Shown here: positions 1,489 to 24,665 of the stretch, one piece after another
Numbering within the stretch: the first letter of the stretch is position 1
Layout: each line of letters begins with the position of its first letter
Virus record (IMG/VR): IMGVR_UViG_3300017746_000143
Coordinates: 1 to 24,796 of that record
Origin: a virus
DNA length: 24,796 bases
Strand: one strand, 5' to 3'
Translations under genes and position numbers: made by a program
Notes under the pieces: model-generated
The model's database searches: none
The model's input: only the letters and a program-made list of their open reading frames with translations
What the model was told of the DNA's origin: nothing

Positions 1489-1956
1489 TTATACTTCGAT
1501 TATTTTATATATTTTTGTATTTAATTGGTTTAAATCATTATGTTGTGTGAGTAAAACACAATTTCTATAATGTTGCCAATCTACTTTATATTTAGTATCT
1601 ACTACACCACCATTTAACTTTTTAATAAGTTCGTTAAGAGCATTAATTGTATATAAGGTGTTGGATTCCTTTTTTCTATGTACTAAAATAGTATTGTCTG
1701 GGATTGTGTGTACATTTCCTTGGTCTACATTATATGTAACCACATATTCATCTTTATCTACAATTTCTAAAACAAACATTTTATTATATATGATTGTATA
1801 TCTCGATTGTATTTCTTCAATAAGTGCATCTAACCCTTCTAAGTTGGTGAAAGTACAAAATAATTTATTATTCAAATCTCCTGCGTTTTGGATGTCTTTT
1901 ATGACATCATAATTCGCATTATACGTATTAGTTCTATTTTGTAAAATTGTAGTCAT
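1489..1956 (-). CDS. Uncharacterised protein coupled to the polymerase-like gene
   Basis: A 155-residue soluble protein that I do not recognise. It is mixed alpha/beta, without signal peptide, membrane span or clear catalytic motif. The best-ordered part is the C-terminal third (TINALNELIKKLNGG, then VDWQHYRNCVLL), which reads as a helix-strand fold. Its ATG at 1956-1954 lies inside the 3' end of the polymerase-like gene with a 23-base overlap in another frame, so translation is probably coupled. It sits between the polymerase-like protein and gp32-uvsX, which suggests a replication-associated role, but nothing in the sequence proves this. It is not obviously T4 RegA, although the position in a replication cluster invites that comparison. 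Confidence 0.8.
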   Translation of the reverse strand: MTTILQNRTNTYNANYDVIKDIQNAGDLNNKLFCTFTNLEGLDALIEEIQSRYTIIYNKMFVLEIVDKDEYVVTYNVDQGNVHTIPDNTILVHRKKESNTLYTINALNELIKKLNGGVVDTKYKVDWQHYRNCVLLTQHNDLNQLNTKIYKIIEV

Positions 1957-3205
1957 AACCTTCTATTTCTTTAATATTTAATTTATATTTTTTGAAAATA
2001 TCTCTTATTTTCTCTAATAATTCTGTTTCATTCTCATCCCAATCAAATAAAAACGAATCATAAGTATATAGTACTAGTTTCGTTTTATATTCTCGTAATA
2101 TACAAAGTATATCCCACAATATCAACACATTTGTAGACGTTTCTAAATTTTGTAAAATGTAATTAAATAACTTTTGTGGATTCATATTATCCAAGTTTTC
2201 TTTTTCATATCTATACCCAGAAATCTTACATTCTACAAACCCATCGCTTTGAAACTTACTCCAAAGTTCTCCTACGTATTTTTCGATTTTTTGAAAGAAT
2301 TCCAGGCCTTTGTAATTGTCAAAAACGCCTCCATAGAGCTGTTTGAAGGTAAGTTCTTTCGATTTTTTATAATCCACTCCATATAAGGAAGCAAAATGAG
2401 CGTGAATATCAACCCCGGCAAAATCATAATCAATAAGACGAGCAGACAAGCTAGGATGGTAAGCAGAAATATCAATTTCCACAAACCTATTATTACGTGG
2501 TATAAAACTTTTTCTACAACCATTTTCTTTATTAAGTGCGGCATAATTTACATTTTTAAATTTATTTGAGGGTCTTGTTGTTGTTGTTTTTAAGTTGAAC
2601 TGAGTGTAGATGTATTCACCATCAACGGGATGGAAATATTCATTGAAGGTTTTGTTGTGTATACGTATTCCACTTCTCTCGATAGCGTTGAATACCACGG
2701 ATACTCTACTGTTAAAGAATTCATCATATTTAGTTTTTTCTATGTTAATATTTGTTTTTAGATCTCTAAAAATCGTTTCACACAATTCATAATGTTTAAC
2801 AATCGGTATAATTAAGTTTAACTCCGGATTATCTTTGTGTTCACGATAATATAAATCATGTGTTTGTGTTGTAGGTCGTATATACGTAGTAGGGGGTGGT
2901 GTTATGTCATAAAGAGTTTTGATTGGAAAATAGTGTAATATTTCCTTTTTATCACGACAATATAATACTTCAAATTTATTTAATAAATCGTTTATACGCG
3001 TGTTTAACACATTTAAACATTCACTATGTGTAATGCATACCATAAAGCCTTTACTCGCTTCAATTGGTCTAATATGCACTAAACTAACATGATTTTGTGT
3101 GGGGTGTATTGTGTCATTATAAGGTATTACCTCAATGAAAGCCTCTTTATAACCACTATTTATTAAAACATTTAACTGCTCCTCGTCTTCTACAAGCCAG
3201 TACAT
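1934..3205 (-). CDS. Compact family A DNA polymerase-like protein, no exonuclease domain
   Basis: Predicted nucleotidyltransferase of the DNA polymerase I (family A) fold. The 423 residues carry the family's motifs in order: a T-x-R-P-S tract just upstream of the palm, resembling the TGRLSS region; motif A at VEIDISAYHPSL with catalytic Asp245; DIHAHFASLYG (266-276), resembling DIH..TA...F; motif B as K283-x3-F287-x3-Y291-G; and motif C as YTYDSF with Asp383, where YDS replaces the usual HDE. The first ~150 residues show no DEDD exonuclease motifs, and the palm/fingers part is shorter than in Pol I (38 residues from motif A Asp to the Lys, against 53). T4 itself uses a family B polymerase, so this may be the replicase of this lineage or an auxiliary polymerase. 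A host-like promoter lies 16 bases upstream, and a weak AAGG ribosome site precedes the ATG. Confidence 0.78.
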   Translation of the reverse strand: MYWLVEDEEQLNVLINSGYKEAFIEVIPYNDTIHPTQNHVSLVHIRPIEASKGFMVCITHSECLNVLNTRINDLLNKFEVLYCRDKKEILHYFPIKTLYDITPPPTTYIRPTTQTHDLYYREHKDNPELNLIIPIVKHYELCETIFRDLKTNINIEKTKYDEFFNSRVSVVFNAIERSGIRIHNKTFNEYFHPVDGEYIYTQFNLKTTTTRPSNKFKNVNYAALNKENGCRKSFIPRNNRFVEIDISAYHPSLSARLIDYDFAGVDIHAHFASLYGVDYKKSKELTFKQLYGGVFDNYKGLEFFQKIEKYVGELWSKFQSDGFVECKISGYRYEKENLDNMNPQKLFNYILQNLETSTNVLILWDILCILREYKTKLVLYTYDSFLFDWDENETELLEKIRDIFKKYKLNIKEIEGYDYNFTK

Positions 3206-4110: not shown

Positions 4111-7100
4111 TTAAATTGGATCTCCAGGATTATTAGTAAACCATATGTCAGATTCTTTTTTTCTTCTAGACAATAATTGTCCATTATTAGTAAGAGTTTT
4201 TTCTAATTCAAACCCCGCTGCTACATATTGTTTTGTATTAATTAAGCTATAAAGTTTTTTCTTAGGATTTGATACACCAGGCCCAGAATTATATGAGAAA
4301 GATAAAAGAGCATTATATTCATTTTGGGTTAGAGGCACTTTTATTCTTTTTTTAGATGACATAGTTTTAGCTATTCCTAATAATACATTATCAAATCCCA
4401 TTTCAGCTGATTCTTTAGTAATAGAGTCTCCTTCTTTTACTGGGGATAATGCTCTGGTACCTTTACCTGTTAATAATTGTCCTCCTCTTTCGTATTGTTG
4501 TCCTTGTGCATAATAAGTTTGTCCATATCCAATAGTCCAAGGTTCATTTTCTTTACCCGGATAATAATCACTTTTTCTTTTTATTTGATTGATTTTTTTA
4601 CGAGGTTTAGGATCTGGGTAGGCATAAGCAACAGTACTTGATCTAAATACTCTATTTACTCCTCCACTATAATAACCCTCAGATATTTTAAGTTCGTCTT
4701 TTATGAATTTATTAGGTTGGAGCTGTGTAGCATCAATTCGGGTTTGATCACCTTCTATAGGTTCAGTTGTATCCTCTTCAACGGTTACAACCTTATTTTC
4801 TTCAAATATTCCTTCATCTGCTAATTTTTCATTTTTAGGTGCTGATGGAGGTATACTAAGAGTAGATATTAAAGTTTCCCATTTATTATCAGCCAATTTA
4901 TGATCTACTTTAGTTATTATAAAATCTAATGTACCTGTACTACTATTTGTTTGATATTCTTGAGGTAAAAATTTCTGATTAACATTTATTTTTTGGTATA
5001 TTTTCATTCCAGATAACCCATCCATAGTTATATTTAAAGTTATAGGTAAAAAACCAGATTGATTTGAAGGTGTACCTGAGAGTCTAAATTCTTTTTGGTC
5101 TCTTAAATTAACATATTCTCTAAAAGCTTGTTTTCCTTTTTTAAAAAAGTCTTTATTTTCCATGTTAAGATATTGTGCTCTATCATTACCAATACGAAAG
5201 GGATTCCCATTAACATCTGTTTTACCTGTTAAATTACCAGTAAGAGCGTATATCATCCACTGCTGATAAGAAGAAGCAAGATCAATATCATTTTCAGATA
5301 CTACATTTGCTCCTGCACCTGATTTAAATGATTTAAAACCATCTAATGCTTCTCTATAAGTTAATCCTGTAAAAGTATAACCATTATATGTACCTGATTT
5401 TTGTTCTCCTCTACCCGTTTTATATTGGACTAAACTGGTTCCACTTTTTATTACCCATTTAATAGAATTACCTACACCAACATTACGGGTTACATCGTCT
5501 TTCATTTTTTGTCTTAAACCCCCAATATCAAGATCCCTTAATACAGTTCCATATGAGTTTCTCTGGAGTATACTATCAATTTTAACTCCCCAATATGCTG
5601 CAAATTTAGCTTCTACGTCTTCTTCTTCAGCCTTTTCTGCTTGTTCTGCTTCTTGTATAGGATTAGGAAAACCTGGGGGAGGTAATATTTGTGGTTGGAA
5701 TCTATCTACAAATCCAGCATTCATAGAAGCAAAAGCAGTACCATCAATTGTTTTAGAAGATGAACCCCCAGCAGTTGTTCCTATAGTCATCATAGTAGCT
5801 AAACTAGAGGGTATTTTAGATTCAAATTTAAAATTTTTTATAAAATTTGATTTAGGTTTACCTTTATCAGAATTAAACCCAAAAACTTCAAAAGGAATAA
5901 TTTCTTGTTTTTCAGGAACTCTCTCTAAAAGTCTTTTTAGTAATTCACTATTACCCCTTATAGGATTTTGATCAATAAATACTATTTCATTAATTTCAGT
6001 ATTAATTATAGGTTCTATTTTATTTACATTACCTAATGAACTATTAATTCCATCACATATAGATGAAAGGAAATTAAATAAACCTAAAGTTCCTTCTTTT
6101 GATATATTTTTATTTAAACATGATCTTATAAAAGAAAAATTTAGGTATACATTCATTAATTTACCATAAATTATATCTTCTTTATCACCAGTTTTTTCTA
6201 AAACTAAAAAATCTTTAATTTTTTGATTTTGTAAAAATTGGGGAGGAGTAACTCCTTCAATATTCAATGAAGGTTTAATAAAACATTTACTAATATCAAA
6301 TGAAATTTGATTAGGTTGGGCACTAACAATATTAACATCTTCATCTGTTCCAATAGATAGTAAAGGAGAATCTAGATCTCCACTTACTACTCTAGGTACT
6401 ACATATTTTTGTATAGCATCTAATAAATTTCCAAATGTAGTATAATAACTATTCATTTTAGTTAACCCATTTGTAATATTAAATTGTGAATTAAGTTGTG
6501 ATTTAAAATTATTTAGTTCTTCTTGAAATCTTTCTTTATTTAAACCTTCTTCTCCAGTTTCCTTTTTGTATTCTTCAGTTAAATTTTTTCGGATTTGTGC
6601 CTTAACTTGGGTCATAGTACCATTAAAAATTGACCCATCAGGGTTAGTATATCTAAAAACTTCTTCAGCAATTTGCCTTTCGTAATTAGCATTTAAAAGA
6701 TTTAAAAATTTTTTATTAGGTCTATATACTGTTGTTGAACCCCCAACTTTAGCATTACGTTTTTCCCATTTATTTAACCATACCTCTATTGTGTTTGAAC
6801 CATTAACTTCAGATTTATCTGAAGCTAGAGAATTTATAGGGGCAGGAATATTTACTTGTAAAGATTCTATAATATCTCCTAAAGTTACTAATTTTATGGT
6901 AATATTATAAGTACCATCTGGGGAGAAATCCCAATCAAAATTAGTTACTCTACCAAAGAATCCATCATAATTACCTTGGTATGTTTTTCTATAGTTTTCA
7001 ATATTTTTTAATACACTTAATTGTGTTTTAGGGGATGATGAAAAAAATGAATCTTCTATTAGAGTTGATCCTACTTCTTCTAAAAGTCCTTCGCTACTAA

Positions 7101-7887
7101 AATATTTATTATGTCCCCATTCTAACATCATAGTAAAACCTAATTTTAAATATAATAATTCAATTAATTGAAATTGAAAAGTATTATAGGCTTTAATTTG
7201 TATTGTTGCAGATCTAATTGATCCTCTATTTATACAATTTACAGTAGCCGATGTAATACCAGGCATTGGTTGTTTACCAAATTGATTTCCTCCTAATCCA
7301 TAAGCTGAATCAGGATTCCAAATTGAGTTACCATCTTCAGAAATTCCAAATCTTGATTTAATAGTTTTATCAGATTGAAGTGAACCTAAACCTGCAAATA
7401 ATACTGCACTTTTTGCTAATTGATTAGTATTTGAAAAACTTTTTGATTGTTCTAAACTAAAACCTATATTTCTGAGTTTTTGGATTCCCATTAATCTTTG
7501 GTTTTTGTTATTTTGTTTTATTTGTTCTTTATATAATTTATATTCCTCCTGACCTCTGTCTAATATTATATAACCATTTTCTCTTTCCTCATTTGTATCC
7601 TTTAATTTATGTGCTCCCCCCCACTCAAAAATACCATTAGGATCTATAGCACCAGATTTATAAGCTTCATCAAAAGTTGGGATATCTAAATAACTAAAAA
7701 AGTCAACTCCAGATGCTAATTTAATAAATGAAGATTTATTATTTAATAAATTAATTTCTCTTGGAGATAAAAGATTAGAATCTTCTAAATTAGTTACATC
7801 ATACCCTTTTCCTGAAAGGGTTTGTCTTGCATTTATTTGATTAAAAACATAATCATCAAATTCTTCTCCTATTAGATTTCCTGTCAT
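4111..7887 (-). CDS. Baseplate hub protein with C-terminal GH24 lysozyme domain
   Basis: A 1258-residue tail protein that probably forms the central baseplate hub and cuts peptidoglycan during injection. From about residue 200, a section with PMPGITSATV and LGFTMMLEWGH resembles hub/structural proteins of marine T4-like phages. A second segment near 985-1012 (FIITKVDHKLADNKWETL) is the sort of beta unit found near hub C-termini. A Pro-rich/acidic linker lies near 730-760. Residues ~1060-1258 look like a phage GH24 lysozyme: candidate catalytic Glu1070 (SEGYY), Asp1092 (YPDP) and Thr1124 (TIGYGQT), then GDSIT, the LTQNEYNALLSFSYNSGPG core and RRKKE near the end. About 54 residues separate Glu and Thr, far more than in T4 lysozyme. 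T4 gp5 also carries a lysozyme, but internally. It follows the LysM gene by 2 bases. Confidence 0.82.
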   Translation of the reverse strand: MTGNLIGEEFDDYVFNQINARQTLSGKGYDVTNLEDSNLLSPREINLLNNKSSFIKLASGVDFFSYLDIPTFDEAYKSGAIDPNGIFEWGGAHKLKDTNEERENGYIILDRGQEEYKLYKEQIKQNNKNQRLMGIQKLRNIGFSLEQSKSFSNTNQLAKSAVLFAGLGSLQSDKTIKSRFGISEDGNSIWNPDSAYGLGGNQFGKQPMPGITSATVNCINRGSIRSATIQIKAYNTFQFQLIELLYLKLGFTMMLEWGHNKYFSSEGLLEEVGSTLIEDSFFSSSPKTQLSVLKNIENYRKTYQGNYDGFFGRVTNFDWDFSPDGTYNITIKLVTLGDIIESLQVNIPAPINSLASDKSEVNGSNTIEVWLNKWEKRNAKVGGSTTVYRPNKKFLNLLNANYERQIAEEVFRYTNPDGSIFNGTMTQVKAQIRKNLTEEYKKETGEEGLNKERFQEELNNFKSQLNSQFNITNGLTKMNSYYTTFGNLLDAIQKYVVPRVVSGDLDSPLLSIGTDEDVNIVSAQPNQISFDISKCFIKPSLNIEGVTPPQFLQNQKIKDFLVLEKTGDKEDIIYGKLMNVYLNFSFIRSCLNKNISKEGTLGLFNFLSSICDGINSSLGNVNKIEPIINTEINEIVFIDQNPIRGNSELLKRLLERVPEKQEIIPFEVFGFNSDKGKPKSNFIKNFKFESKIPSSLATMMTIGTTAGGSSSKTIDGTAFASMNAGFVDRFQPQILPPPGFPNPIQEAEQAEKAEEEDVEAKFAAYWGVKIDSILQRNSYGTVLRDLDIGGLRQKMKDDVTRNVGVGNSIKWVIKSGTSLVQYKTGRGEQKSGTYNGYTFTGLTYREALDGFKSFKSGAGANVVSENDIDLASSYQQWMIYALTGNLTGKTDVNGNPFRIGNDRAQYLNMENKDFFKKGKQAFREYVNLRDQKEFRLSGTPSNQSGFLPITLNITMDGLSGMKIYQKINVNQKFLPQEYQTNSSTGTLDFIITKVDHKLADNKWETLISTLSIPPSAPKNEKLADEGIFEENKVVTVEEDTTEPIEGDQTRIDATQLQPNKFIKDELKISEGYYSGGVNRVFRSSTVAYAYPDPKPRKKINQIKRKSDYYPGKENEPWTIGYGQTYYAQGQQYERGGQLLTGKGTRALSPVKEGDSITKESAEMGFDNVLLGIAKTMSSKKRIKVPLTQNEYNALLSFSYNSGPGVSNPKKKLYSLINTKQYVAAGFELEKTLTNNGQLLSRRKKESDIWFTNNPGDPI

Positions 7888-13419: not shown

Positions 13420-14088
13420 TTAAAAAAATAATTTATTTGTTTTTGTATTTAGATCATAATAATAATGACCTTGAAAAGTTATTCTTGAATCTCCTTTTTT
13501 TAATTCAAATCCACCTATCCTATGATTTATATTTCCATTCCATATATGCAAACTTCCTAATTTATATTCTTTAGTTCCTGTTTTATAATCTAAATAAGGA
13601 GTAATTCCATTACATTCTATAAGAGATACAAAAGAATATATTTTATTAGTATCAATAGTAGGATAATAATCTAAAATACTAGTATCTACATGATAATTAA
13701 ATTCATTAAAAGGTTGAATATTATTAGCATATACATGAAATCCAGGAATAGTAAGATCAGGTTCTAATTCAGATGTTATTGAAGTAATTTCTGTAATTTT
13801 ATTTGTAATTTTTGTATATAACCAATGAAATGTTTCTAACAACACAAATTGGGTTTCTAACGTTATATCTTCTTTATGTCCCTCTAATCTATATAAAGCA
13901 TCCCCTAGAAGATATTCTGCTTTATATTGGTCTTTTAAAACTTCTATAAGGGGAGTATCTTTGTAGGGTAATAAATGTGAATTTCGATATTGAGAAGAAT
14001 GTTTCCAATATTGTTTTAAATTATATACTTCTTCTTTTATTAAATTAATTTCAGTAGAAGATAAAAAATCTGAATAGTTTTGAACCAT
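13420..14088 (-). CDS. 2-oxoglutarate/Fe(II)-dependent oxygenase
   Basis: A 222-residue oxygenase-like protein expected to use 2-oxoglutarate, O2 and Fe(II) to hydroxylate a protein or small molecule. The metal triad is visible: His133-x-Asp135 (NYHVDTS) and distal His189 (INHRIGG), with Arg202 (DSRITFQG), 13 residues on, as the usual 2-oxoglutarate anchor. Strand-rich surroundings fit the double-stranded beta-helix fold; the first 110 residues are helical. Such enzymes are common cargo in marine T4-like phages, but the substrate is not evident. The gene interrupts the tube-chaperone order of the tail cluster, has a terminator hairpin just upstream, a second hairpin just downstream and no late-type motif. 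It looks like an inserted accessory gene expressed at low level by readthrough. Confidence 0.82.
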   Translation of the reverse strand: MVQNYSDFLSSTEINLIKEEVYNLKQYWKHSSQYRNSHLLPYKDTPLIEVLKDQYKAEYLLGDALYRLEGHKEDITLETQFVLLETFHWLYTKITNKITEITSITSELEPDLTIPGFHVYANNIQPFNEFNYHVDTSILDYYPTIDTNKIYSFVSLIECNGITPYLDYKTGTKEYKLGSLHIWNGNINHRIGGFELKKGDSRITFQGHYYYDLNTKTNKLFF

Positions 14089-14684: not shown

Positions 14685-17045
14685 TTATGCTGGGAATGTT
14701 GCTCCAGTTGGTAATACATTGAAATCTAATATTACAAATTCAGCTGTTTTAGTTGGTTGTAAGAATATTTGTCCTACTAACTCATTTCTATCTATTACAG
14801 TTGGATTATTATTAGTATCATCCATTACTACTTTAAATGCATACAATCCTTGTCTTTGTTGTACTCCTTCTAAATATGGGTTTACTACACTTAAGAAATT
14901 ATTTCTTGTAGCAATTGTATTTTGTTCAAATACTAAATTATCAGCTACTCCAGAAATAAATCCTTTAAGAGCAATTAACAATCTACGTACATTTACTCTA
15001 TCTAGAGCACTAGCTCTTTTCTGTAAAGTTTTCTGACCAAATACTACTACTCCACTTTGTGGGAATGTTGCTAATGGATTAACATTTGCTTCATACAAAG
15101 TATCTCTATTAGTTGCTGTTAATTTTCTTTCAGCTCTAACTACTTGTCCTAAAGCTCCTCTAGTTAATCCAGCTGGTGCAAACCATGGTTCACTTGAAGC
15201 ATCTGTAAATACATAAACTCCTGGAATTACTGTTGATGCTGGTGAATATACTAATTCTCCAGTTTGAGGATCAATCATTTGAACCCATGGCCAATATGTT
15301 GCTGCATAACTATTATCAAAAGCAGAAGCTGCTTGTGATACTGAAGCTATTGAGCTACCATATTGTACTAAATCTAATACAGCAATATTATCACCTCTGT
15401 TTATCGAGTTATTAATTAAAGCCGTAGTTTGAGTTGCGTGAACTGCGTTAATTAACCCAGGAGCACTTATTACATTATATCTATACTCATCTACATTTCC
15501 TAATAAAGCAATTGCGTTATTATAATCACTACCTGTTAAACCTTGTGTATCAAAAGCTACACCATCTCCAATTTTATCATAGAAATTAGCAACTCTACCA
15601 GATACAATATTATTTCCTACTGCTCCATTAAATGAACCAGATTGAACAGCTGGTAAAGAACCTGTAAATTCAGATTTTGCTTGCCCATTATTATCAAAAT
15701 AATTAGGGGTTTTCATATTTACAGATTTAACTCTTACATATCTTGATAAATTAGCATATGATCCTGATTCTTGTATAAAGTAATCTGCACCTTCATTTAC
15801 TAAACGTTTACTAATATCACCAATTTGAGCTGCGATATAATTTGGTTGGTATGGGTCTAATGACACATTAGTATATTGTTCTAATACTACTTGTTGATTT
15901 GCATTATCATCACCTCTACGAATAAGTAAACTAAATGTTCCTGAACCAGTATTTACACTTGCTACTGACCAGCGTACATTTTCACGAGATCCTGTTGCTA
16001 ATGCTCCTTCACTTAATTCTTGTGTTCCTGTATTCATTATAGCACCTTCAGAAATTGTTTCTAGTTCAAAAGGTTGATTTACATCTGCTAAATTATCTGC
16101 TTCTAATGTTACAACAGCGGTATCAGCAGTTAAATCTGCTTCTTGAATTGTAATAACTGTATCTCCAGTACCTGAACCTGCACCTATTGCATTATTAACA
16201 GCAGCTGCAGATATTGTAAAAATTGTTCCTACTTTAACTCCTTCTCCTAACCCTGTTGCTGTTATAGTTCTAATATTAGCGGCTCCATCTCCACCTGCTG
16301 TAGTTATTGTAAAAGTTACTCCAGTTACTCCTGTTGAATTTACACCACTTACTATTGCGTTTGCGGTTGAAGTGTTTCCTTGGGTAACTGTAAAAGTACC
16401 ATCATTACCATTTGCAAATCCTAAAGTAGCTGAACCTGTTAATTCAGTTGCTACTAATGGAGAACCACCTACATCATTAGTTGAAAATGTAATTGTATCT
16501 CCTACTTCATATCCATTTCCTGCGGAAGAAGCAGTTACTCCTGTTACTATTCCATTATTAGTTTGAAGAGCAAATGTTGCTCCTGTTCCACCACCACTAG
16601 CAATAAAAGTTTGTGGTGCTGCGTAAACCACTACCCCAGAACCTGTAAATGCTGTACCAACAGATGTTACAGAACTAAATAAAGCTGCTGCATTATCATC
16701 TCCTGTTAATAAACCAGATCCATCTACTGTACTAATAAATGAGCTTGTCGCAGAAGTAAAATCTTCTGGAGTTACTCTAGTAACTAATAAACTAGATCCA
16801 CCACTTTGGAAATAATTATTTGCTGCTAATGAGGTTAAGTATGAGTATGCTATTGAAGCACTTTCTACTGTGGTACCAAAAATTGCTGAATATTCACTAA
16901 ATGAAGTAACCAAAGTAGGAACTTCAACTGGACCTAATGCTGTTGGTCCTATAATAGCGGCACCAATTTCAGCTGGTTGTTGAGTAATAAATGATTGGTC
17001 GTTTTCTCTAGCTAATACACCTGGAGATAATAATGTTTCTGCCAT
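14685..17045 (-). CDS. 18: Contractile tail sheath protein (gp18-like) with inserted domain
   Basis: A 786-residue tail sheath subunit (T4 gp18 is 659); contraction of the sheath drives the tube into the host. The N-terminus (LLSPGVLARENDQSFITQQP, then IIGPTALGPV, SFSEYSAIFG) and C-terminal part (ALKGFISGVADNLVFEQN, QRQGLYAFKVVMDDTNN, KTAEFVILDF) have the usual sheath pattern. Between about residues 135 and 325 is an extra Gly/Thr/Ala-rich beta region with units such as GATFAL....GNGYEVGDTITF, of the kind seen in decoration or fibre-like domains. It probably sits on the outer face of the sheath. The tube gene follows 42 bases later. The late-type motif upstream is a one-base variant. Confidence 0.93.
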   Translation of the reverse strand: MAETLLSPGVLARENDQSFITQQPAEIGAAIIGPTALGPVEVPTLVTSFSEYSAIFGTTVESASIAYSYLTSLAANNYFQSGGSSLLVTRVTPEDFTSATSSFISTVDGSGLLTGDDNAAALFSSVTSVGTAFTGSGVVVYAAPQTFIASGGGTGATFALQTNNGIVTGVTASSAGNGYEVGDTITFSTNDVGGSPLVATELTGSATLGFANGNDGTFTVTQGNTSTANAIVSGVNSTGVTGVTFTITTAGGDGAANIRTITATGLGEGVKVGTIFTISAAAVNNAIGAGSGTGDTVITIQEADLTADTAVVTLEADNLADVNQPFELETISEGAIMNTGTQELSEGALATGSRENVRWSVASVNTGSGTFSLLIRRGDDNANQQVVLEQYTNVSLDPYQPNYIAAQIGDISKRLVNEGADYFIQESGSYANLSRYVRVKSVNMKTPNYFDNNGQAKSEFTGSLPAVQSGSFNGAVGNNIVSGRVANFYDKIGDGVAFDTQGLTGSDYNNAIALLGNVDEYRYNVISAPGLINAVHATQTTALINNSINRGDNIAVLDLVQYGSSIASVSQAASAFDNSYAATYWPWVQMIDPQTGELVYSPASTVIPGVYVFTDASSEPWFAPAGLTRGALGQVVRAERKLTATNRDTLYEANVNPLATFPQSGVVVFGQKTLQKRASALDRVNVRRLLIALKGFISGVADNLVFEQNTIATRNNFLSVVNPYLEGVQQRQGLYAFKVVMDDTNNNPTVIDRNELVGQIFLQPTKTAEFVILDFNVLPTGATFPA

Positions 17046-17366: not shown

Positions 17367-17378
17367 TTATAAATATTA
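17367..17378 (-). promoter_or_regulatory. Late-type motif before the coiled-coil gene
   Basis: TAATATTTATAA on the coding strand, a full match 11 bases before the ATG, overlapping the TAA stop of the upstream glycosyltransferase gene. A near copy (TGATATTTATAA, 17395-17406) lies 28 bases upstream inside that gene's final codons. Confidence 0.6.
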
Positions 17379-18284
17379 ATGTTTTTCTATTCTATTATAA
17401 ATATCACTTTTTACTTTAGAGGTAAGATCTATTAATTTATTATTATGATAATACCCTAAACTCTTTATTTCAGAAAAGTATATAATAGATTGTTTATTAT
17501 TTAAACTAATTACTTCTCCATTTATATTTATTTTTACTAATTTTTCTTCAAAATTATCATATACTATAACTTCATTTTTAGAAAAAAATAATTTATATTG
17601 ATTATTACTTTTATTATAATTTAATACATCTGGGTTTCCTGTTTCTAACAATCCTACTATTTTTGTTTCTACTTTAGTATAATCAAAATTAGAAATTAAA
17701 TGTCCCCAATATGCTTCTGCATCTAAATATAAAGATTGTTTTGTTATTGGGTCTGAGCTGGTGTATTCTTGTTTAGATATTAAAGTATTAATTTTATTAG
17801 CATTTTCTTTACTTAAAATGTTAAATAATAAACTTGGAAATAGAGAAACATTGGTAGTTGGGTCTTTAAAATCGCTACATATAAAATCTTTAGGATTATT
17901 AAGTATATTTAATACTTCTTCTGTTATTTCTATATCGTAATTTATAAAAGAATAATGAGAATAATCTAAATTTTGGCAAAATGTAATTGCGTTTTTTTTC
18001 AAATTAAAAACAGTCCACCCATAATCATTCATTATATGTGATATTTTTTGATTTTGAATAATTCTCCAAAATTCCATTCCCCTTTCAGGGTATTTTAAAA
18101 TAGGATTACTTTTATCATATACTAAATAATCTATATCATTTTGAATTGAAATAGGTAAAGGGGAGTGAGATGCTATTAATATATCAAATTTATTTTTTAT
18201 TTGATTAATCATATTATGTAACAATTTTATTTTTTGTTCTGTATCACAATAACATACAATGATAACTAAATTTTTATTTTTCAT
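17376..18284 (-). CDS. GT-A-like glycosyltransferase candidate
   Basis: A 302-residue protein whose N-terminal half resembles family 2/GT-A nucleotide-sugar binding folds: a first strand (LVIIVCYCDTEQKIKLLHNMI), a second strand LIASHSPLP, then DYLVYDKSNPIL. A later acidic strand (SFINYDIEI) could take the place of the DxD metal site. The C-terminal ~80 residues are strand- and lysine-rich and unrecognised. The ATG overlaps the end of the 1243-residue glycan enzyme gene by 11 bases (ATGAAAAATAA), so translation is coupled and the two proteins probably work in one pathway. No hydrophobic segment suggests a cytoplasmic enzyme. Acceptor and sugar donor cannot be read from the sequence. Confidence 0.66.
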   Translation of the reverse strand: MKNKNLVIIVCYCDTEQKIKLLHNMINQIKNKFDILIASHSPLPISIQNDIDYLVYDKSNPILKYPERGMEFWRIIQNQKISHIMNDYGWTVFNLKKNAITFCQNLDYSHYSFINYDIEITEEVLNILNNPKDFICSDFKDPTTNVSLFPSLLFNILSKENANKINTLISKQEYTSSDPITKQSLYLDAEAYWGHLISNFDYTKVETKIVGLLETGNPDVLNYNKSNNQYKLFFSKNEVIVYDNFEEKLVKININGEVISLNNKQSIIYFSEIKSLGYYHNNKLIDLTSKVKSDIYNRIEKH

Positions 18285-21200
18285 AACATGCTATATAAGG
18301 GGTTATATCTTTACTTTCGTTATACTTAGTAATAGATTCATATTCTATATAATTAGTATCAGAATTGCTTTTAAACCAATCACCATTTTTAGTTAATATT
18401 TGATTAATAACAGGTTGTTCTGATTTATATAATTTTAATAATTCTAATTTTTTATCTAAAATATTTTTAGATAATTTTGTAGAATTTTTACTAAAAACAT
18501 AAAATTTATTAGTTAGTTTTTTAATAGTTTCAAATAATCTTTTATGTTTGGGATGACCATATTCTCCTATAGGATTATGAGTTACAATTTTTTCCCAATT
18601 TTTAGATAATAAGTTTTTAAAAAGATTTAAATCATAAATTTCGGTTTCATCATAAAGTGAATCTTTAAAATCCCACATTTCATAAGAACCTACATTAAGT
18701 GATTCCATTACATTTTTAAATTCTTGATTCCTAATTTTATTACTTTTATTTGTAATACAAACTACTTTATACTCTGGGCCATGTTGTATTAATTCTGCTC
18801 CTCCAAATATTAATTCATCATCGGGGTGTGCAACAATCATTAACTTTTTAAGTTGATAATCATGGAATGCCTTATTTAAGGTATTAGCATTTTTAGGTGC
18901 AACTGAAGGGTCTGGTCCATGAATAAAATAGGGTTGAAGAGAAAATTTATCATACATTACATCAAATCCTTGTTTTAAAAAATAGGGGTTAACTAAAATT
19001 TCATCCTGTGAACTATAATAATTATTCCATGTAATAGGTAAATCTAATGTTTTATTTTCTTCCCATAAGATATTATTAGCTACTCTTTCTTCTGAAAATG
19101 CATTATCATCGGTATAAATTTTAATTGAGTATTGGTTTAATTCTTTATTCCATTCTAAACATTTTTCAAAAAATAATTTACATTCTTTATTATAAAAATA
19201 AAACCCTGTTGCTATTAATTTATTATTTGGGTTTCGTTTTAAATTTTTTATTGAAGCTAATTCATTACCATAGTTTCCTTCTAATTTTATACCCTTATGA
19301 TATCTCCATTGATTGATATCTTCATGAAAATATTTCATAAATAAAGGATAATCTTTTAAATTAGATAAGTATTGTAGTGAAGTATCTATATGTTCAGTTA
19401 CAAATGCATCACCATCTATCCATGCAAAATTATCATAGTTTTCTTCTAATGAATCTAAACTTGCTAGATATTTAGCAAAATATATAGAATAATCTTTACT
19501 AAATAAATCTGGTTCATGGGTAGAATTTATAGTTGGTTTTGGTTTGTAATTAATTCTTTTATTTATTACATTAGGTAAATCAATTGTAGAATCACAATTA
19601 AAACTATATACTATAAGTTTATATTCAGAATATTTTAATAAACTTTTAGCTAATACTTCTATCATAGGTAAATAACTTTCATTACCTCCTGTTATCCATG
19701 TAAATTTAAAGTTTTTTTTTGGTTCTAATATTTTTAATACTTTATTATATACTACATCTGTAGTTATTGATTTTTGACATATATGTTGGTTTTGGGTTCC
19801 CTCATTTTCAGGACACCAATCCCAATTACCTGGGTCAAATACATGTTTAGGACTAACCCAACAATTATTACATACAGAGTTATTTTCTATCTTAGTTAAA
19901 TTATGAGTAAATTCAAACCCATGAGGAATAAAATTATTAATCATAACTGTATGTTTATCTAGTACCCAATTAAGCCAAGATAAACCAGAACCTAATCCTA
20001 TAAACAAATCAGCATGGTATAAATGATTTAATGTATCTTCCCATTTTAAATTCTTTTTATCTATTATATTTGTTCCTTTAAAACCTTCTTTTGATATATT
20101 AACTACTTTATATCCTTTACTTTGTAATTTTTTAGCTAATAATCTAAAATTTTCATGAGGCCATTCTTTTAACCCTGATGTTGCTCTAGGGGCAATACAA
20201 ATGTATTTACCTTTAATAGGTCTTTTTTTTGGAGTAAAATCTATACCATAATGTACCTCTTTATAAGGCAAACCTAAAATATCTGTAGCTGCTTGGATAA
20301 GAGGAATAGTATTTACTTGTGTTTTATGATGATCAAAGTTTTTCCAATCACCCTCACTACTTTTAAACCATCCTATTTGATATACTGCATAGGCATTATA
20401 TGGATCTCCAGGTTTTATAAATTTAATATCTTTATATTCTGGGAGATTTTTAAACCATTCATTATGGAATGTACTAACTATTACTTTACATTTATGTTTT
20501 TTATAAAATTCAAGTACTTGTGGGGTCCATGCTAATGTATCTCCTAATGCCTTAGATTCAAAATTAATTTTAACTGTTTTATCTTTTAAATTAAACTTAT
20601 GTACAACTTCCCCATCTATTTTTATAATCCAAGGTATATAATAAGATTTACTACATTTAGTCCACATATTATTAGTAATAGTAGAAGAATGTATAACTTT
20701 ATTATTAGAACTATCTATAAATTCAACAAAATATTTTTGTTTATTATGTCCCTTAATTTCTACTTTAGGGCCTAAATCAAAACTAATTTCTATTTTATTT
20801 TTAGGTATATTAATTAAAAAATCAGATATCTCTTTACTCGCTATTTTTGCTGCATTTTCCCAAGTAAATTTTTCTCTAATAATTTTAGATTCTTTTAAAG
20901 CTATTTCTTTATGTTTTTTATAATTAACATAAGCATCTCTCATTTGTTGTTTTAAATGATTAAAATCAGGTTCATAAAATTCACCTGCTAAAAAAGATTG
21001 AGAAAAACTACTATATTCTCCTCTTTTAGCATCAGACATAGATTTTATAGAAACAGGTAAACCCATTCCCTTTGCAAATTCTAATTGTGCACTACAATTT
21101 GAATAAATAGAAGGAGTACCACAAGCCATAGCTTCAATTAAAGGTAAATTCCATCCTTCAGCTCGGGCACAAGATAAAAATACATGACCCTTTTGGAGAT

Positions 21201-22005
21201 ATTTTATATATTCTTCTCTAGTAGGAAAATGTTTAATTTTTAGTCTTGGATCTTCTAAATTATAGTTTTTAAGTCTATTTTCCGTTGTATCAAATCCATC
21301 TTTAGCAAATGGGTTATCTATAGATAAAACTAAATCTACAGGTTCATTTTCATTAAATTCCTCTAAAAAAGATTCAATAATTTCTTTGGTTGCTTTTCTA
21401 TAATCCCATCTACCAAACATAACAAATTTAAACCTATCATCTTTATATTCTGGAAGTGTTACATTTGCATCTGGGTAGAATATTTTCCCATCAACTGCTT
21501 CAGGTATAACTTTAACCTTTTTAGGGTCCATTCCTTGTTCTATAGTGCAATCTCTTTGCCAGTTAGAAGCAACCCATACTTGATCATATTCTTTTAGTTT
21601 ATTAAAAAAATCATCTGGTTGGCGAGTTGATTCCCATACATTATAAGCTATTTTAGGACCATCATAGTTTTGGTAATAAAAATGATGAGCAGTTTCATTT
21701 AAAACAATATTCACATTATGATCAAAATTTTGACCATATGATGAATACATAGAATGATGGTTTAAAATTCTATTTTCATCCCATAATGATTGTTCACATA
21801 AAAGTTGTTTATCTAAAGAATCTAAATATTTTTCATTATTATGTGGTTCTTCACTATGACCATCCCAAGATTTCCCTACTGTATAATTTCTAACTTTTAA
21901 TGGGTGTAATTTAGATAATTCTCTATAAAAAAATCTAGTATGATTTGCATAACCTGTAGTTCCTATATAACTACCATGAGCAAATATTTTAGGTATTTTA
22001 TTCAT
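18274..22005 (-). CDS. Four-domain glycan enzyme: GT4 + TibC-like heptosyltransferase + GT-A + PIG-L deacetylase
   Basis: A 1243-residue cytoplasmic multi-enzyme. Residues ~1-400 form a GT4-type glycosyltransferase (FGRWDYRKATKEI; EX7E with Glu283/Glu291 in EGWNLPLIEAMACGTP). Residues ~480-760 resemble the TibC/AAH autotransporter heptosyltransferases: SKALGDTLAW at the start, PGDPYNAYAVYQIGWF, APRATSGLKEWP, IGLGSGLSWLNW, and a finger with Cys712, Cys715, Cys731 and Cys743. Residues ~765-1010 look like a GT-A transferase with Asp864-Gly-Asp866 (WIDGDAF). Residues ~1053-1243 are PIG-L/LmbE de-N-acetylase-like: AHPDDE (His1060, Asp1062, Asp1063) with GG, and GEYGHPKH (His1151, His1154). The fusion could add, extend and deacetylate a glycan on a virion or host protein. 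It lies between tail-completion and sheath genes, but its upstream promoter is the host-like type. Domain limits are approximate. Confidence 0.83.
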   Translation of the reverse strand: MNKIPKIFAHGSYIGTTGYANHTRFFYRELSKLHPLKVRNYTVGKSWDGHSEEPHNNEKYLDSLDKQLLCEQSLWDENRILNHHSMYSSYGQNFDHNVNIVLNETAHHFYYQNYDGPKIAYNVWESTRQPDDFFNKLKEYDQVWVASNWQRDCTIEQGMDPKKVKVIPEAVDGKIFYPDANVTLPEYKDDRFKFVMFGRWDYRKATKEIIESFLEEFNENEPVDLVLSIDNPFAKDGFDTTENRLKNYNLEDPRLKIKHFPTREEYIKYLQKGHVFLSCARAEGWNLPLIEAMACGTPSIYSNCSAQLEFAKGMGLPVSIKSMSDAKRGEYSSFSQSFLAGEFYEPDFNHLKQQMRDAYVNYKKHKEIALKESKIIREKFTWENAAKIASKEISDFLINIPKNKIEISFDLGPKVEIKGHNKQKYFVEFIDSSNNKVIHSSTITNNMWTKCSKSYYIPWIIKIDGEVVHKFNLKDKTVKINFESKALGDTLAWTPQVLEFYKKHKCKVIVSTFHNEWFKNLPEYKDIKFIKPGDPYNAYAVYQIGWFKSSEGDWKNFDHHKTQVNTIPLIQAATDILGLPYKEVHYGIDFTPKKRPIKGKYICIAPRATSGLKEWPHENFRLLAKKLQSKGYKVVNISKEGFKGTNIIDKKNLKWEDTLNHLYHADLFIGLGSGLSWLNWVLDKHTVMINNFIPHGFEFTHNLTKIENNSVCNNCWVSPKHVFDPGNWDWCPENEGTQNQHICQKSITTDVVYNKVLKILEPKKNFKFTWITGGNESYLPMIEVLAKSLLKYSEYKLIVYSFNCDSTIDLPNVINKRINYKPKPTINSTHEPDLFSKDYSIYFAKYLASLDSLEENYDNFAWIDGDAFVTEHIDTSLQYLSNLKDYPLFMKYFHEDINQWRYHKGIKLEGNYGNELASIKNLKRNPNNKLIATGFYFYNKECKLFFEKCLEWNKELNQYSIKIYTDDNAFSEERVANNILWEENKTLDLPITWNNYYSSQDEILVNPYFLKQGFDVMYDKFSLQPYFIHGPDPSVAPKNANTLNKAFHDYQLKKLMIVAHPDDELIFGGAELIQHGPEYKVVCITNKSNKIRNQEFKNVMESLNVGSYEMWDFKDSLYDETEIYDLNLFKNLLSKNWEKIVTHNPIGEYGHPKHKRLFETIKKLTNKFYVFSKNSTKLSKNILDKKLELLKLYKSEQPVINQILTKNGDWFKSNSDTNYIEYESITKYNESKDITPYIACYEK

Positions 22006-22073: not shown

Positions 22074-22997
22074 CTATTCTTCCCTAGTCTGTCCACCAGG
22101 AAAAGTTTTTATTCCCTGCTCAAATGTATCTACATTACTAATAGTTTCAAAATTAATTGTAACTTTAGATTTACTATTCCATTTATTAATTGAGTGCATT
22201 TCTTTTTGGATAGTATCAGGTATAATATAACCTCTTAATTGTATATTAAATGTACCTTTTACTAATCTATCTTTACCTTGAGTCAATTCTGTAGCAGTTG
22301 TAAATTGGTCTATAAATGCTCTAAATTTAAATCTTTCTGGATTACCCCAATAGGCATCAGAGGCATATTCACATGCTTCAATAATTTTATTTAACTGTTC
22401 CATATAGTATGTTTGAATAATACAACTATATTCTAATGTAACAAAATCAGGAACAGCAACTGCATAATGTTCTTTTATTGGTTTTTTATTATTTAATACT
22501 GAAAAATTATTATAAAAATTATCAGGACTATATCTTTTTTGGAATGAACTATATAAATTTACACCATTAGCATCTAATTTATTATAAACTGATCTATCTT
22601 TTGCTATTGAATCTCTTTTTACAACAATAATAGGTAACATTATAGCACCTTTTTTATCTCTATAATAACCATCTCTTTGAAATGATTTCCATCTTTCAGG
22701 AGATCCATAAATTATAGGTACATTTCTTCTTCCACCATTTTGATATACAAAAGGTTTAATAACTTCTTTAAAATAATAAAATACCGCTTCATCTAAATCT
22801 TGAAGGCCAATAGAGAAGGGTTTTGTATCATCATTTTTAAAACTTAATTTAGTTGATCTATTAAAATCTATTCCGGTTTCAGATTCATTTGGGTTAATAC
22901 GAGCATTAGGATTACCCCTTTCAGTATCAAAAGCTTTTTGTTGTTCAATACTTATTTGTCTTTGTGTTTTAGGTATAGGTTTTCTAATTTTACTCAT
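22074..22997 (-). CDS. Tail completion / sheath terminator candidate (gp15-like)
   Basis: A 307-residue protein whose pattern parallels T4 gp15 (272 residues), the ring that caps the tail and joins it to the neck. Shared landmarks, in order, are an early VPIIYGSPERWKS strand-turn, a LPIIVVKRDSI strand, the TLEYSCIIQTYYMEQLNKIIE strand-helix, FKFRAFIDQF and a late TFNIQLRGYIIPD. The N-terminal ~45 residues are polar and basic, and the C-terminus ends in a flexible GGQTREE tail. It starts on the stop codon of the preceding gene (TAATG, one-base overlap), and lies third in a gp13-gp14-gp15-like order. Similarity is by pattern only; gp3-like function is the main alternative. Confidence 0.72.
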   Translation of the reverse strand: MSKIRKPIPKTQRQISIEQQKAFDTERGNPNARINPNESETGIDFNRSTKLSFKNDDTKPFSIGLQDLDEAVFYYFKEVIKPFVYQNGGRRNVPIIYGSPERWKSFQRDGYYRDKKGAIMLPIIVVKRDSIAKDRSVYNKLDANGVNLYSSFQKRYSPDNFYNNFSVLNNKKPIKEHYAVAVPDFVTLEYSCIIQTYYMEQLNKIIEACEYASDAYWGNPERFKFRAFIDQFTTATELTQGKDRLVKGTFNIQLRGYIIPDTIQKEMHSINKWNSKSKVTINFETISNVDTFEQGIKTFPGGQTREE

Positions 22998-23512
22998 TAC
23001 ATTCTTTCTTGATATGGAGAAATTGCTACTTTATCTGCTGGTATATAATAGGTTGATACTAATATTGATAAATTATTTCCAAAATATTCTAACCCAGGAT
23101 TTAATGGGTTTATATTATTTGGATAATCTGGATTTTTGCCTCCAAAATATTGGTTTGCTACTGTACTTTGTACTCCATAATATCCTTCTTGATATAAAAT
23201 TATATCACCAACTTCAGGTACCACATCGGCATCTACTAAATCGTCTCTAAAGAAATAAAAATCAATTGGTTGATTAAACTGAATTCCTTCTTCGTCTTCA
23301 CCAAACACCTCATTTGATCTATTTATTAATACATTAAATAAGAAAGGACCATTATAAAATTTAGCACCAGCAGCTTCACCATATATATTAACTTTAGTTT
23401 CTTCTAATTTAAATTGGTATAAAGCACATTGTTGGGTAATAATATTACCCATCAATTCTCTATTTAATTTTCTTACCAGAGAGACATCTCTCTGTCCTGT
23501 AAACATTGCCAT
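22997..23512 (-). CDS. Neck protein candidate (gp14-like)
   Basis: A 171-residue protein shorter than T4 gp14 (256), the neck ring that closes the head. Similar landmarks include an early NIYGEAAG, the VFGEDEEGIQFNQPIDFYFF segment (compare FGED near the same place in gp14), then VPEVGDIILYQEGYYGV, a strand-turn that matches the EGDLIYFP...LFEI pattern, and finally NNLSILVSTYYIP. The gene lies between the gp13-like and gp15-like genes, one base from the former's stop and overlapping the latter's start by one base, so the three are co-translated. Assignment depends heavily on the gene order. Confidence 0.68.
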   Translation of the reverse strand: MAMFTGQRDVSLVRKLNRELMGNIITQQCALYQFKLEETKVNIYGEAAGAKFYNGPFLFNVLINRSNEVFGEDEEGIQFNQPIDFYFFRDDLVDADVVPEVGDIILYQEGYYGVQSTVANQYFGGKNPDYPNNINPLNPGLEYFGNNLSILVSTYYIPADKVAISPYQERM

Positions 23513-23513
23513 A

Positions 23514-24665
23514 TTATCCTACATAAATAGTCCAAGGGACTTGTTGTAATTCTACCATTTTAGATTCTGCTTCTTGTGCTTTTCTATTTAATAAAGCTGC
23601 TCTAGAAGTTTCGTCTAAATATGCTCTTAGTCTTTCCAATAATGCTGTTTTTTCTGCTGTTGCGGCTGACAATAAATCTCCTTGATTTAAATTAACTTCC
23701 GCATTTGGGATTGGGATACTAGAATATTTACCTCTAACATACCCTAACATTTCTTTAGCAATAGCTAATGTCATTTCAAATATCCACTGTCTACCAATTG
23801 AATTTATTAATGAGTATTTAGGGTTTTTAAAATTAGCATTACCAACATTATTAACTTGATCAGCAGCACATTTTACTCCTCCTCTATCTTTTTCAAAAAT
23901 ATATTGGAACCATATTTTACCGTTTTGTTCTGGAACAGGAAATACTTTAAGATCATTACCATGCATTTCAAAACTATAATTTGACCATCTGACCATTTCA
24001 TTCATTTCAATGGCTTGAATAACTTGCATATCATAACTTAAGGGCATCATCAAATAACCCATATCACCTCCAAATCCACCTACTCCTACTAATCCTGCAG
24101 CTATGGATCCACCAAAACCCCAACCTGTATATGGATCTAAATATTGAGCTGATGCAGGAACTGGTTCTTGGTAGAACACTCTTTTTATCTCAATACCTTC
24201 TGAATATGCAGATCCTGTAAATCCACTTGCTGTCATAAAGGTTTCAAAACTATAATTTTGTTGTCCTTTAACTAAATCAAAAGAACCAGAATACCAAGGA
24301 ATTGTTCCTCCTACCCCTGCTTCATCTGCATATTGTTGAGTTAATCTAACTATAGTTTTCATACTAGGAGTAATAATAGTTTCATTTAACTCTTCAAATA
24401 TAGAAAGTCCTTCTAAATCCAGAAAATTATCTCTAACAATATAAGCCCATATTTCATTTCCATAAATAGTTACCGCTTCTTCAAATGCTGTATAGAAAGA
24501 TCCAGATTGTAATTCAATATCAACTAAAGGGTAACCCATTCTATTAGCACAAAAAACAGCTACTTTATCTGCGTCCCTTCTAAATTCAGGATCGTTATCA
24601 TAAAAGCCAAAAGGTGTTTCTCCGGGTGCGAATGAACTTGAACCAGGCCAAATAGGTACATTCAT
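23514..24665 (-). CDS. Neck / head completion protein candidate (gp13-like)
   Basis: A 383-residue virion protein that opens the neck block (T4 gp13 is 309). The N-terminus has FAPGETPFGFYDNDPEF and MGYPLVDIELQSGSFYTAFEEAV, a helix-rich domain typical of neck/adaptor-like proteins in T4-like marine phages. The middle contains a Gly/Met-rich loop (GGSIAAGLVGVGGFGGDMGYL), and the last 100 residues are helical (IFEMTLAIAKEMLGYVRGKY, AEKTALLERLRAYLDE), ending VPWTIYVG. It has a late-type motif 13 bases upstream of the ATG at 24665-24663 and lies just beyond a terminator, so it heads its own operon. The two following genes are packed at 1 and -1 bases. Confidence 0.74.
   Translation of the reverse strand: MNVPIWPGSSSFAPGETPFGFYDNDPEFRRDADKVAVFCANRMGYPLVDIELQSGSFYTAFEEAVTIYGNEIWAYIVRDNFLDLEGLSIFEELNETIITPSMKTIVRLTQQYADEAGVGGTIPWYSGSFDLVKGQQNYSFETFMTASGFTGSAYSEGIEIKRVFYQEPVPASAQYLDPYTGWGFGGSIAAGLVGVGGFGGDMGYLMMPLSYDMQVIQAIEMNEMVRWSNYSFEMHGNDLKVFPVPEQNGKIWFQYIFEKDRGGVKCAADQVNNVGNANFKNPKYSLINSIGRQWIFEMTLAIAKEMLGYVRGKYSSIPIPNAEVNLNQGDLLSAATAEKTALLERLRAYLDETSRAALLNRKAQEAESKMVELQQVPWTIYVG

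What the first reader, a model, noticed from the sequence alone, without database searches (positions are those of the whole stretch)
18274..22005. Single phage polypeptide carrying a four-step glycan pathway
One 1243-residue gene joins a GT4 transferase (EX7E Glu283/Glu291), a TibC/AAH-like heptosyltransferase (four-Cys finger), a GT-A transferase (DGD 864-866) and a PIG-L/LmbE deacetylase (AHPDDE, HPKH). Families are established; the fusion and its position between tail-completion and sheath genes in a T4-like phage look unusual. It could build and trim a glycan on a virion or host protein. An alternative is capsule/LPS modification or base modification of phage DNA.
Basis: partly seen in the sequence, partly recalled or inferred. 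Interest (0 to 1): 0.85.

Follow-up and report, generated by a model that had tools for sequence, protein, structure and literature searches.

The report
Phage four-enzyme polypeptide glycosylating tail proteins
A marine phage carries one giant protein made of three sugar-transferring enzymes and one sugar-trimming enzyme, the core of an optional gene island next to its tail genes that most likely coats serine/threonine-rich tail-fibre repeats with sugar, something I found no description of for phages.

Summary
The ORF at 18274-22005 (minus strand, 1243 aa) joins a GT4 transferase, a TibC/AAH-like transferase, a GT-A transferase and a PIG-L deacetylase. Key catalytic residues are invariant in 28 distinct full-length fusions; HMMs, PDB matches and a predicted structure support the domains. 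The overlapping gene (17376-18284) is another GT-A-fold enzyme.

It is not an oddity of one phage. The TibC domain recurs in hundreds of viral contigs; in 121 of 138 assessable clusters it lies upstream of a sheath gene, in an optional, variable sugar-gene island. Sheath relatives lacking it have tail-completion directly before g83-sheath. Domains also occur split, fused otherwise, or in a 2859-aa chain.

The substrate clue is new. TibC-bearing phages often encode fibres with long Gly-Ser/Thr-Ser tracts. TIGR04414 occurs in 13/36 contigs with such tracts, 0/34 with proline-type collagen. In methanotrophs all eight phage-like TibC genes adjoin a Ser/Thr-repeat protein gene; the five genomes (of 121) with strict GT-repeats are all TibC-positive.

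Best reading: phage-encoded O-glycosylation of repetitive tail fibres. Shown: enzymes, architecture, associations. Inferred: chemistry, substrate. The window holds no such fibre; a 119-kb relative does.

The parts
18274..22005 (-). Four-domain fusion gene, 1243 aa (GT4 - TibC-like - GT-A - PIG-L)
20806..22005 (-). GT4 glycosyltransferase domain, residues 1-400, EX7E E283/E291
   Evidence: PF00534 1.1e-10, phrog_2170 1.4e-29; E283 and E291 in 28/28
19711..20805 (-). TibC/AAH-like glycosyltransferase domain, residues 401-765; base D489, K613, W677, four-Cys finger C712/C715/C731/C743
   Evidence: TIGR04414 9.1e-59 at 199.3 bits; PDB 4rap 3.5e-33; residue mapping and conservation
18856..19710 (-). 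GT-A glycosyltransferase domain, residues 766-1050, D864/D866
   Evidence: AlphaFold pLDDT 91; Z 15.6 over 219 aa to alpha-1,3-galactosyltransferase; both Asp invariant over 28 aligned sequences down to about 24% identity
18277..18855 (-). PIG-L/LmbE de-N-acetylase domain, residues 1051-1243, AHPDDE and HPKH
   Evidence: PF02585 2.1e-11; Z 15.7 over 169 aa to teicoplanin deacetylase; a domain with its own recombination history
17376..18284 (-). g302: GT-A-fold glycosyltransferase, start overlaps the fusion gene by 11 bases; fused to the GT-A domain or lying between GT4 and TibC in relatives
   Evidence: AlphaFold pLDDT 94, Z 14.1 over 176 aa to GlcAT-S; fusions L014, L043
17104..17355 (-). g83: small conserved protein that precedes the sheath gene with or without the island
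14685..17045 (-). Tail sheath gene, downstream flank of the island; variable Ser/Thr/Gly-rich insert after about residue 95
   Evidence: phrog_23 2e-61, PF04984; insert seen
22074..22997 (-). Tail-completion-type gene, upstream flank of the island
   Evidence: name from gene order only; directly before g83-sheath in relatives that lack the island

Best explanation
The gene is the core of a phage-encoded protein O-glycosylation island. The TibC-like domain attaches the first sugar to Ser/Thr in highly repetitive Gly-Ser/Thr-Ser (collagen-like) tracts of the phage's own tail fibres; the GT4 and GT-A domains and the g302 enzyme add further sugars; the PIG-L domain removes an acetyl group from an N-acetylated sugar, leaving a free amine. 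Fusion keeps the steps on one chain in fixed proportion, which suits a substrate with tens to hundreds of near-identical sites. The island is optional and its extra genes (dehydratase, methyltransferases, nucleotidyltransferases, further transferases) differ between relatives, so the glycan probably differs too. Shown here: enzyme families and catalytic residues, conserved fusion, island position, genomic association with Ser/Thr-Gly repeats in phages and in bacteria. Inferred: the chemistry and order of the steps, the substrate, and the benefit to the phage (shielding or altered adsorption).
For: Domains and residues. TibC is the constant element of the island. Known TibC/AAH enzymes are protein O-glycosyltransferases that hyperglycosylate repeats (PMC4358343). 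Fibres linked to TibC loci are 60% GSS/GTS triplets; in loci away from the sheath TibC lies 33-95 bp from such a fibre gene (L290, L295, L308). Reverse test: TIGR04414 in 13/36 contigs with Ser/Thr tracts, 0/34 with proline-type tracts. Within the sheath lineage strict tracts in 11/19 TibC-positive viral contigs, 0/8 TibC-negative records. Methanotrophs: eight of eight phage-like TibC genes adjoin a secreted Ser/Thr-repeat protein gene, the one canonical TibC adjoins an AIDA-like protein; all five genomes of 121 with strict GT-repeats are TibC-positive. Close 119-kb relative of the window's fusion has a 57 GTS + 38 GSS fibre tract. No membrane segment in the protein (maximum 19-residue hydropathy 0.94).
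Against: No biochemistry. The window itself has no collagen-like gene. Of the TibC-positive sheath-lineage contigs, 8 of 19 show no strict tract and 23 of 36 contigs with tracts show no TibC (fragments, or other enzymes). Sheath adjacency is more constant than fibre adjacency. Associations are not phylogenetically independent. Donor and linkage unknown; the adenine contact Arg286 is lost.
Confidence: 0.55

Rival explanations
1. Virion O-glycosylation, but the main acceptor is the neighbouring tail sheath (or another tail protein) rather than the fibre repeats.
For: TibC lies upstream of the sheath gene in 121 of 138 assessable clusters, median distance 354 bp; sheaths carry a variable Ser/Thr/Gly-rich insert after about residue 95.
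Against: Relatives without TibC have similar sheaths, also 750-770 aa forms with the insert; short sheaths of about 570 aa also go with TibC; where TibC leaves the sheath locus it is often beside a fibre gene; the bacterial homologues have repeat-protein partners and no sheath.
Confidence: 0.22
2. The enzymes modify host LPS, O-antigen or capsule, for instance to exclude other phages, as proposed for glycosyltransferases of pelagimyophages (PMC7029224).
For: Sugar-nucleotide enzymes and transferases in the island resemble O-antigen genes; some contigs carry nucleotidyltransferase genes.
Against: The gene sits among late virion genes; no flippase, polymerase or membrane-bound initiating transferase appeared among the island proteins scanned; the TibC family acts on proteins; the bacterial homologues pair with secreted repeat proteins.
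Confidence: 0.15
3. The enzymes glycosylate modified bases of the phage DNA.
For: A role often proposed for phage glycosyltransferases (e.g. PMC10202952).
Against: No base-modifying enzyme among the proteins scanned; protein-acting TibC family; secreted-protein partners in bacteria.
Confidence: 0.02

Closest known systems
Bacterial autotransporter heptosyltransferases TibC/AAH (TIGR04414; PDB 4rap, 4rb4; PMC4358343)
   Same: Homologous domain; same catalytic Asp, Thr/Lys/Trp donor contacts and four-Cys iron finger; acts, in bacteria, on repetitive passenger proteins encoded next door.
   Different: Arg286 adenine contact replaced, thumb shortened in the window's branch, Pro300/Ser294 position is Gly; fused to three other enzymes; no strand-loop-strand target; phage-like relatives pair with Gly-Ser/Thr repeat proteins.
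Chlorovirus PBCV-1 multidomain glycosyltransferases A111/114R and A064R (PMC7826918)
   Same: Viral single polypeptides with several sugar-transferring domains that build a glycan on a virion protein independently of the host pathway.
   Different: Eukaryotic virus, N-glycan of the major capsid protein, unrelated TibC/PIG-L content; here a tailed phage, probably O-glycan of tail proteins.
Glycosyltransferases in tail-fibre regions of pelagimyophages (PMC7029224)
   Same: Marine T4-like phages with glycosyltransferases beside fibre genes and collagen-repeat virion proteins.
   Different: Interpreted there as host O-antigen modification; no TibC-like enzyme or multi-enzyme fusion mentioned.
Collagen lysyl hydroxylase/glycosyltransferases LH3, ColGalT1 and mimivirus R699
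   Same: Among the best Foldseek matches of the GT-A domains; some islands carry GT25 and 2OG-oxygenase genes; the acceptor would also be Gly-X-Y repeats.
   Different: Fold-level resemblance only (about 10% identity); those enzymes act on hydroxylysine, here Ser/Thr would be modified.

Membership tests
TibC/AAH autotransporter heptosyltransferase (TIGR04414) | Score at or above the curated cut-off of 200 bits | tested here: inconclusive
   199.3 bits for the window protein; methanotroph and several phage relatives exceed the cut-off
TibC/AAH autotransporter heptosyltransferase (TIGR04414) | Catalytic Asp110 and donor contacts Thr226, Lys230, Trp305 | tested here: met
   D489, T609, K613, W677; conserved in nearly all relatives
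TibC/AAH autotransporter heptosyltransferase (TIGR04414) | Arg286 contact to the adenine of ADP-heptose | tested here: not met
   Thr in the window; Arg in only 29 of 84 phage-type rows and in none of eight methanotroph rows
TibC/AAH autotransporter heptosyltransferase (TIGR04414) | Iron finger of four Cys | tested here: met
   C712, C715, C731, C743
TibC/AAH autotransporter heptosyltransferase (TIGR04414) | Beta-hairpin thumb (Phe265, Val266) that builds the dodecamer | tested here: not met
   gap at these columns in the window and in 42 of 84 phage-type rows
TibC/AAH autotransporter heptosyltransferase (TIGR04414) | Strand-loop-strand autotransporter target (TIGR04415) | tested here: not met
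   none in 17 phage records; most records are fragments
TibC/AAH autotransporter heptosyltransferase (TIGR04414) | Uses ADP-heptose, modifies Ser | not testable with these tools
   needs biochemistry
GT4 glycosyltransferase | Glycos_transf_1 domain above the Pfam cut-off and EX7E motif | tested here: met
   41.8 bits against 26.4; E283/E291 in 28/28
GT-A fold glycosyltransferase (residues 766-1050) | GT-A fold with metal-binding DxD | tested here: met
   Z 15.6 over 219 aa; D864 and D866 invariant
PIG-L/LmbE de-N-acetylase | PF02585 above cut-off, AHPDDE and HPxH motifs, fold | tested here: met
   44.8 bits against 28.2; motifs; Z 15.7
GT-A fold glycosyltransferase (g302) | GT-A fold with acidic metal-binding motif | tested here: inconclusive
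   fold met, Z 14.1 over 176 aa; invariant Y116-D117 rather than a classic DxD

The most novel reading that the evidence does not exclude
A distinct TibC-like branch, carried mainly by phages and also by methanotrophs, is dedicated to hyper-O-glycosylating (Gly-Ser/Thr-Ser)n collagen-like tracts. In phages it anchors swappable, often fused, glycan-building islands that dress the tail fibres: a phage counterpart of the virion-glycan machinery of giant viruses.
Probability: 0.5. Interest if true: 0.87.

Novelty: new variant of a known kind. Interest (0 to 1): 0.74.

Why it matters
Glycosyltransferases are common in phage genomes and are usually assigned to DNA or host-envelope modification. This island offers a specific, testable alternative: phages that build elaborate sugar coats on their own fibres, with an identifiable acceptor sequence (GSS/GTS triplets) and a marker enzyme. 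It bears on phage adsorption and virion stability, gives a way to predict protein glycosylation from metagenomes, and offers single-chain enzyme sets as models for coupled glycan synthesis.

Tried and rejected
TIGR04415 target repeats in the phage records: none. Sheath insert as a TibC-dependent acceptor: its presence does not track TibC. First reading of L030 and kin as 'g302 + TibC': a clustering artefact; the 358-aa neighbour is a GT4 enzyme. 2OG-oxygenase idea for the gene at 13420-14088: no Pfam, PHROG or NCBIfam hit and no similarity to a confirmed 2OG protein of a relative. Paper searches found no report of TibC-like enzymes or glycosylated Gly-Ser/Thr tracts in phages, but only open-licence papers are held. 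Searches were malformed queries without result; one search was a badly formatted submission.

Full report
OBSERVATION. The ORF at 18274-22005 exists, on the minus strand. It encodes 1243 aa: GT4 (about 1-400; PF00534 1.1e-10, phrog_2170 1.4e-29), TibC/AAH-like (404-758; TIGR04414 9.1e-59, PDB 4rap 3.5e-33), a stretch without convincing Pfam match (766-1050) and PIG-L (1055-1161; PF02585 2.1e-11). An AlphaFold model of residues 761-1243 (pLDDT 91) gives a GT-A fold closest to GT6/GT8 enzymes (Z 15.6 over 219 aa) and a PIG-L fold closest to glycopeptide-antibiotic deacetylases (Z 15.7 over 169 aa). The motif residues are at the stated positions and the catalytic ones are invariant across 28 full-length fusions. 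The GT4 and TibC-like domains were not modelled; they rest on sequence matches.

SURROUNDINGS. Read along the minus strand the order is neck-type genes (23514-24665, 22997-23512), tail-completion-type gene (22074-22997), the fusion, g302 (17376-18284), g83, sheath, tube. The neck and tail-completion names rest mainly on order. The g302 gene starts 11 bases before the fusion gene ends. Its model (pLDDT 94) is a GT-A fold (Z 14.1 over 176 aa). The region has lower GC (about 0.21-0.29) than the sheath gene (0.30-0.37), as expected of accessory DNA.

RELATIVES. The TibC domains held fall into 154 clusters at about 90% identity by a k-mer measure. Of 138 viral clusters that can be judged, 121 have a sheath gene downstream on the same strand, median distance 354 bp. 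Among sheath loci newly fetched, 23 had TibC, 30 had none with at least 1.5 kb upstream held, and 18 were too short to tell; many of the 30 show the tail-completion-type gene directly before g83-sheath, so the island is optional. One of the 30 (L691) keeps GT-A/PIG-L and g302 genes and is probably cut off.

MODULARITY. The four domains occur as one chain (28 distinct sequences); as GT4-TibC plus GTA-PIGL (L010, L016-L018, L028); as GT4-TibC plus GTA-g302 without PIG-L (L014, L015, L019, L021); as GT4-TibC alone (L022-L026); as TibC behind a separate GT4 gene (L030, L032, L033, L041); as GT4-g302-TibC with a methyltransferase-like stretch in the cultured Microcystis phage Mel-JY01 (L043); and in L105 as a 2859-aa chain of GT4, three FkbM methyltransferase stretches, DUF6625, two GT-A domains, PIG-L, a CmcI-type methyltransferase and TibC. 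Inside the window's fusion the PIG-L domain has a different history: against L002/L003 its dS is 0.69-0.72 while the other domains have 0.24-0.58; against L009 it is 0.40 while the others have 0.68-0.78. This indicates recombination of one domain inside a fused gene. dN is well below dS throughout.

OTHER ISLAND GENES in relatives: Polysacc_synt_2 dehydratase and RmlD-like protein, APS kinase, small CTP_transf_like, C-methyltransferase, FkbM methyltransferase, GT25, GT2, flavin amine oxidoreductase, NTP_transferase and 2OG-Fe(II) oxygenases.

SUBSTRATE. In loci without a neighbouring sheath the TibC gene is often beside a collagen-like fibre gene (L290, L308, L295 at 33-95 bp; tail-fibre PHROGs for L290 and L308). 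Over all loci held, 84 distinct collagen-like ORFs contain 10811 Gly-X-Y triplets, of which 3281 are GSS and 3250 GTS; X is Ser or Thr in 72%. The reverse test started from contigs chosen only by triplet DNA of the Ser/Thr type or of the proline type: TIGR04414 was present in 13 of 36 and in 0 of 34 (Fisher 7e-5). Two more contigs with mixed tracts, found by the Ser/Thr pattern, were both positive. Within the sheath lineage, strict Ser/Thr tracts occur in 11 of 19 TibC-positive viral contigs and in 0 of 8 TibC-negative records, two of which exceed 110 kb. Mel-JY01 did not match the strict pattern, although an ORF in its record has 77 GTS and 57 GSS triplets. The 119-kb relative G001, with a full fusion of the same kind, has 57 GTS and 38 GSS. 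The window itself has no collagen-like gene.

BACTERIAL PARALLEL. The closest clearly chromosomal relatives are in Methylobacter and kin. In 121 genomes of that family, nine exceed the TIGR04414 cut-off. Eight are of the phage-like type and all eight adjoin a gene for a secreted protein with Ser/Thr repeats, mostly (GTS)n-like; in one (L615) the tract is Ser-rich and the gene has an internal stop. The ninth is the canonical type (654 bits) and adjoins an AIDA-like protein, a built-in positive control. A strict GT-repeat DNA pattern matches five of the 121 genomes, all five TibC-positive, two of them at places away from the TibC gene (hypergeometric 3e-7). In a tree rooted on the single canonical sequence the eight form one clade nested among phage sequences (quick search, one long outgroup).

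MECHANISM. By homology the TibC-like domain would start the O-glycan: the catalytic base and three donor contacts are kept, but the adenine-contacting Arg is replaced and the thumb is missing (residue roles from PMC4358343), so neither ADP-heptose nor the dodecamer should be assumed. GT4, GT-A and g302 would extend the glycan and PIG-L would deacetylate an N-acetylated sugar. The order of steps is not known.

LIMITS. The associations are genomic and not phylogenetically independent; most contigs are fragments; counts rest on my own HMM and triplet definitions. The host is unknown: sheath similarity to a Flavobacterium phage and phage-like contigs in Flavobacteriales MAGs are only hints. The literature search covers open-licence papers only.

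Noticed in passing
L105:270-8849 (IMGVR_UViG_3300009320_000478): A single 2859-aa ORF: GT4, three FkbM methyltransferase stretches, DUF6625, two GT-A domains, PIG-L, CmcI-type methyltransferase, TibC; followed by a 770-aa protein with a cytidylyltransferase-like domain.
   Followed up: partly
L251, L252, L613, L614, L616, L617, L618 (Methylobacter and relatives): Chromosomal TibC-like genes beside genes for secreted proteins with (GTS)n-like tracts: a possible bacterial O-glycosylation pair apart from the autotransporter type.
   Followed up: yes
G027 (IMGVR_UViG_3300025687_000056), G020, G031: Very long collagen-like ORFs (open frames of 4184, 2745 and 2645 aa) in phage contigs.
   Followed up: partly
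window 13420-14088: Gene of 222 aa between tube and hub genes, absent at that place in some relatives, with HxD and later H/R residues reminiscent of 2OG-Fe(II) oxygenases; no family match.
   Followed up: partly
L005:7370-8401, L007:7126-8571 and others: Four small genes before the fusion in relatives: APS kinase, HAD-like (by eye), cytidylyltransferase-like, and a 72-aa membrane-like protein (by eye).
   Followed up: no
window 4111-7887: A 1258-aa baseplate-type protein whose C-terminal part looks by eye like a phage lysozyme.
   Followed up: no
window 1934-3205: A 423-aa protein with motifs that look by eye like a family A DNA polymerase, near ssDNA-binding-like and RecA/UvsX-like genes.
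   Followed up: no
L071 (IMGVR_UViG_3300046167_000884): The fusion gene is broken within the GT4 domain (290 + 967 aa) in a 120-kb contig: sequencing error or a decaying copy.
   Followed up: no
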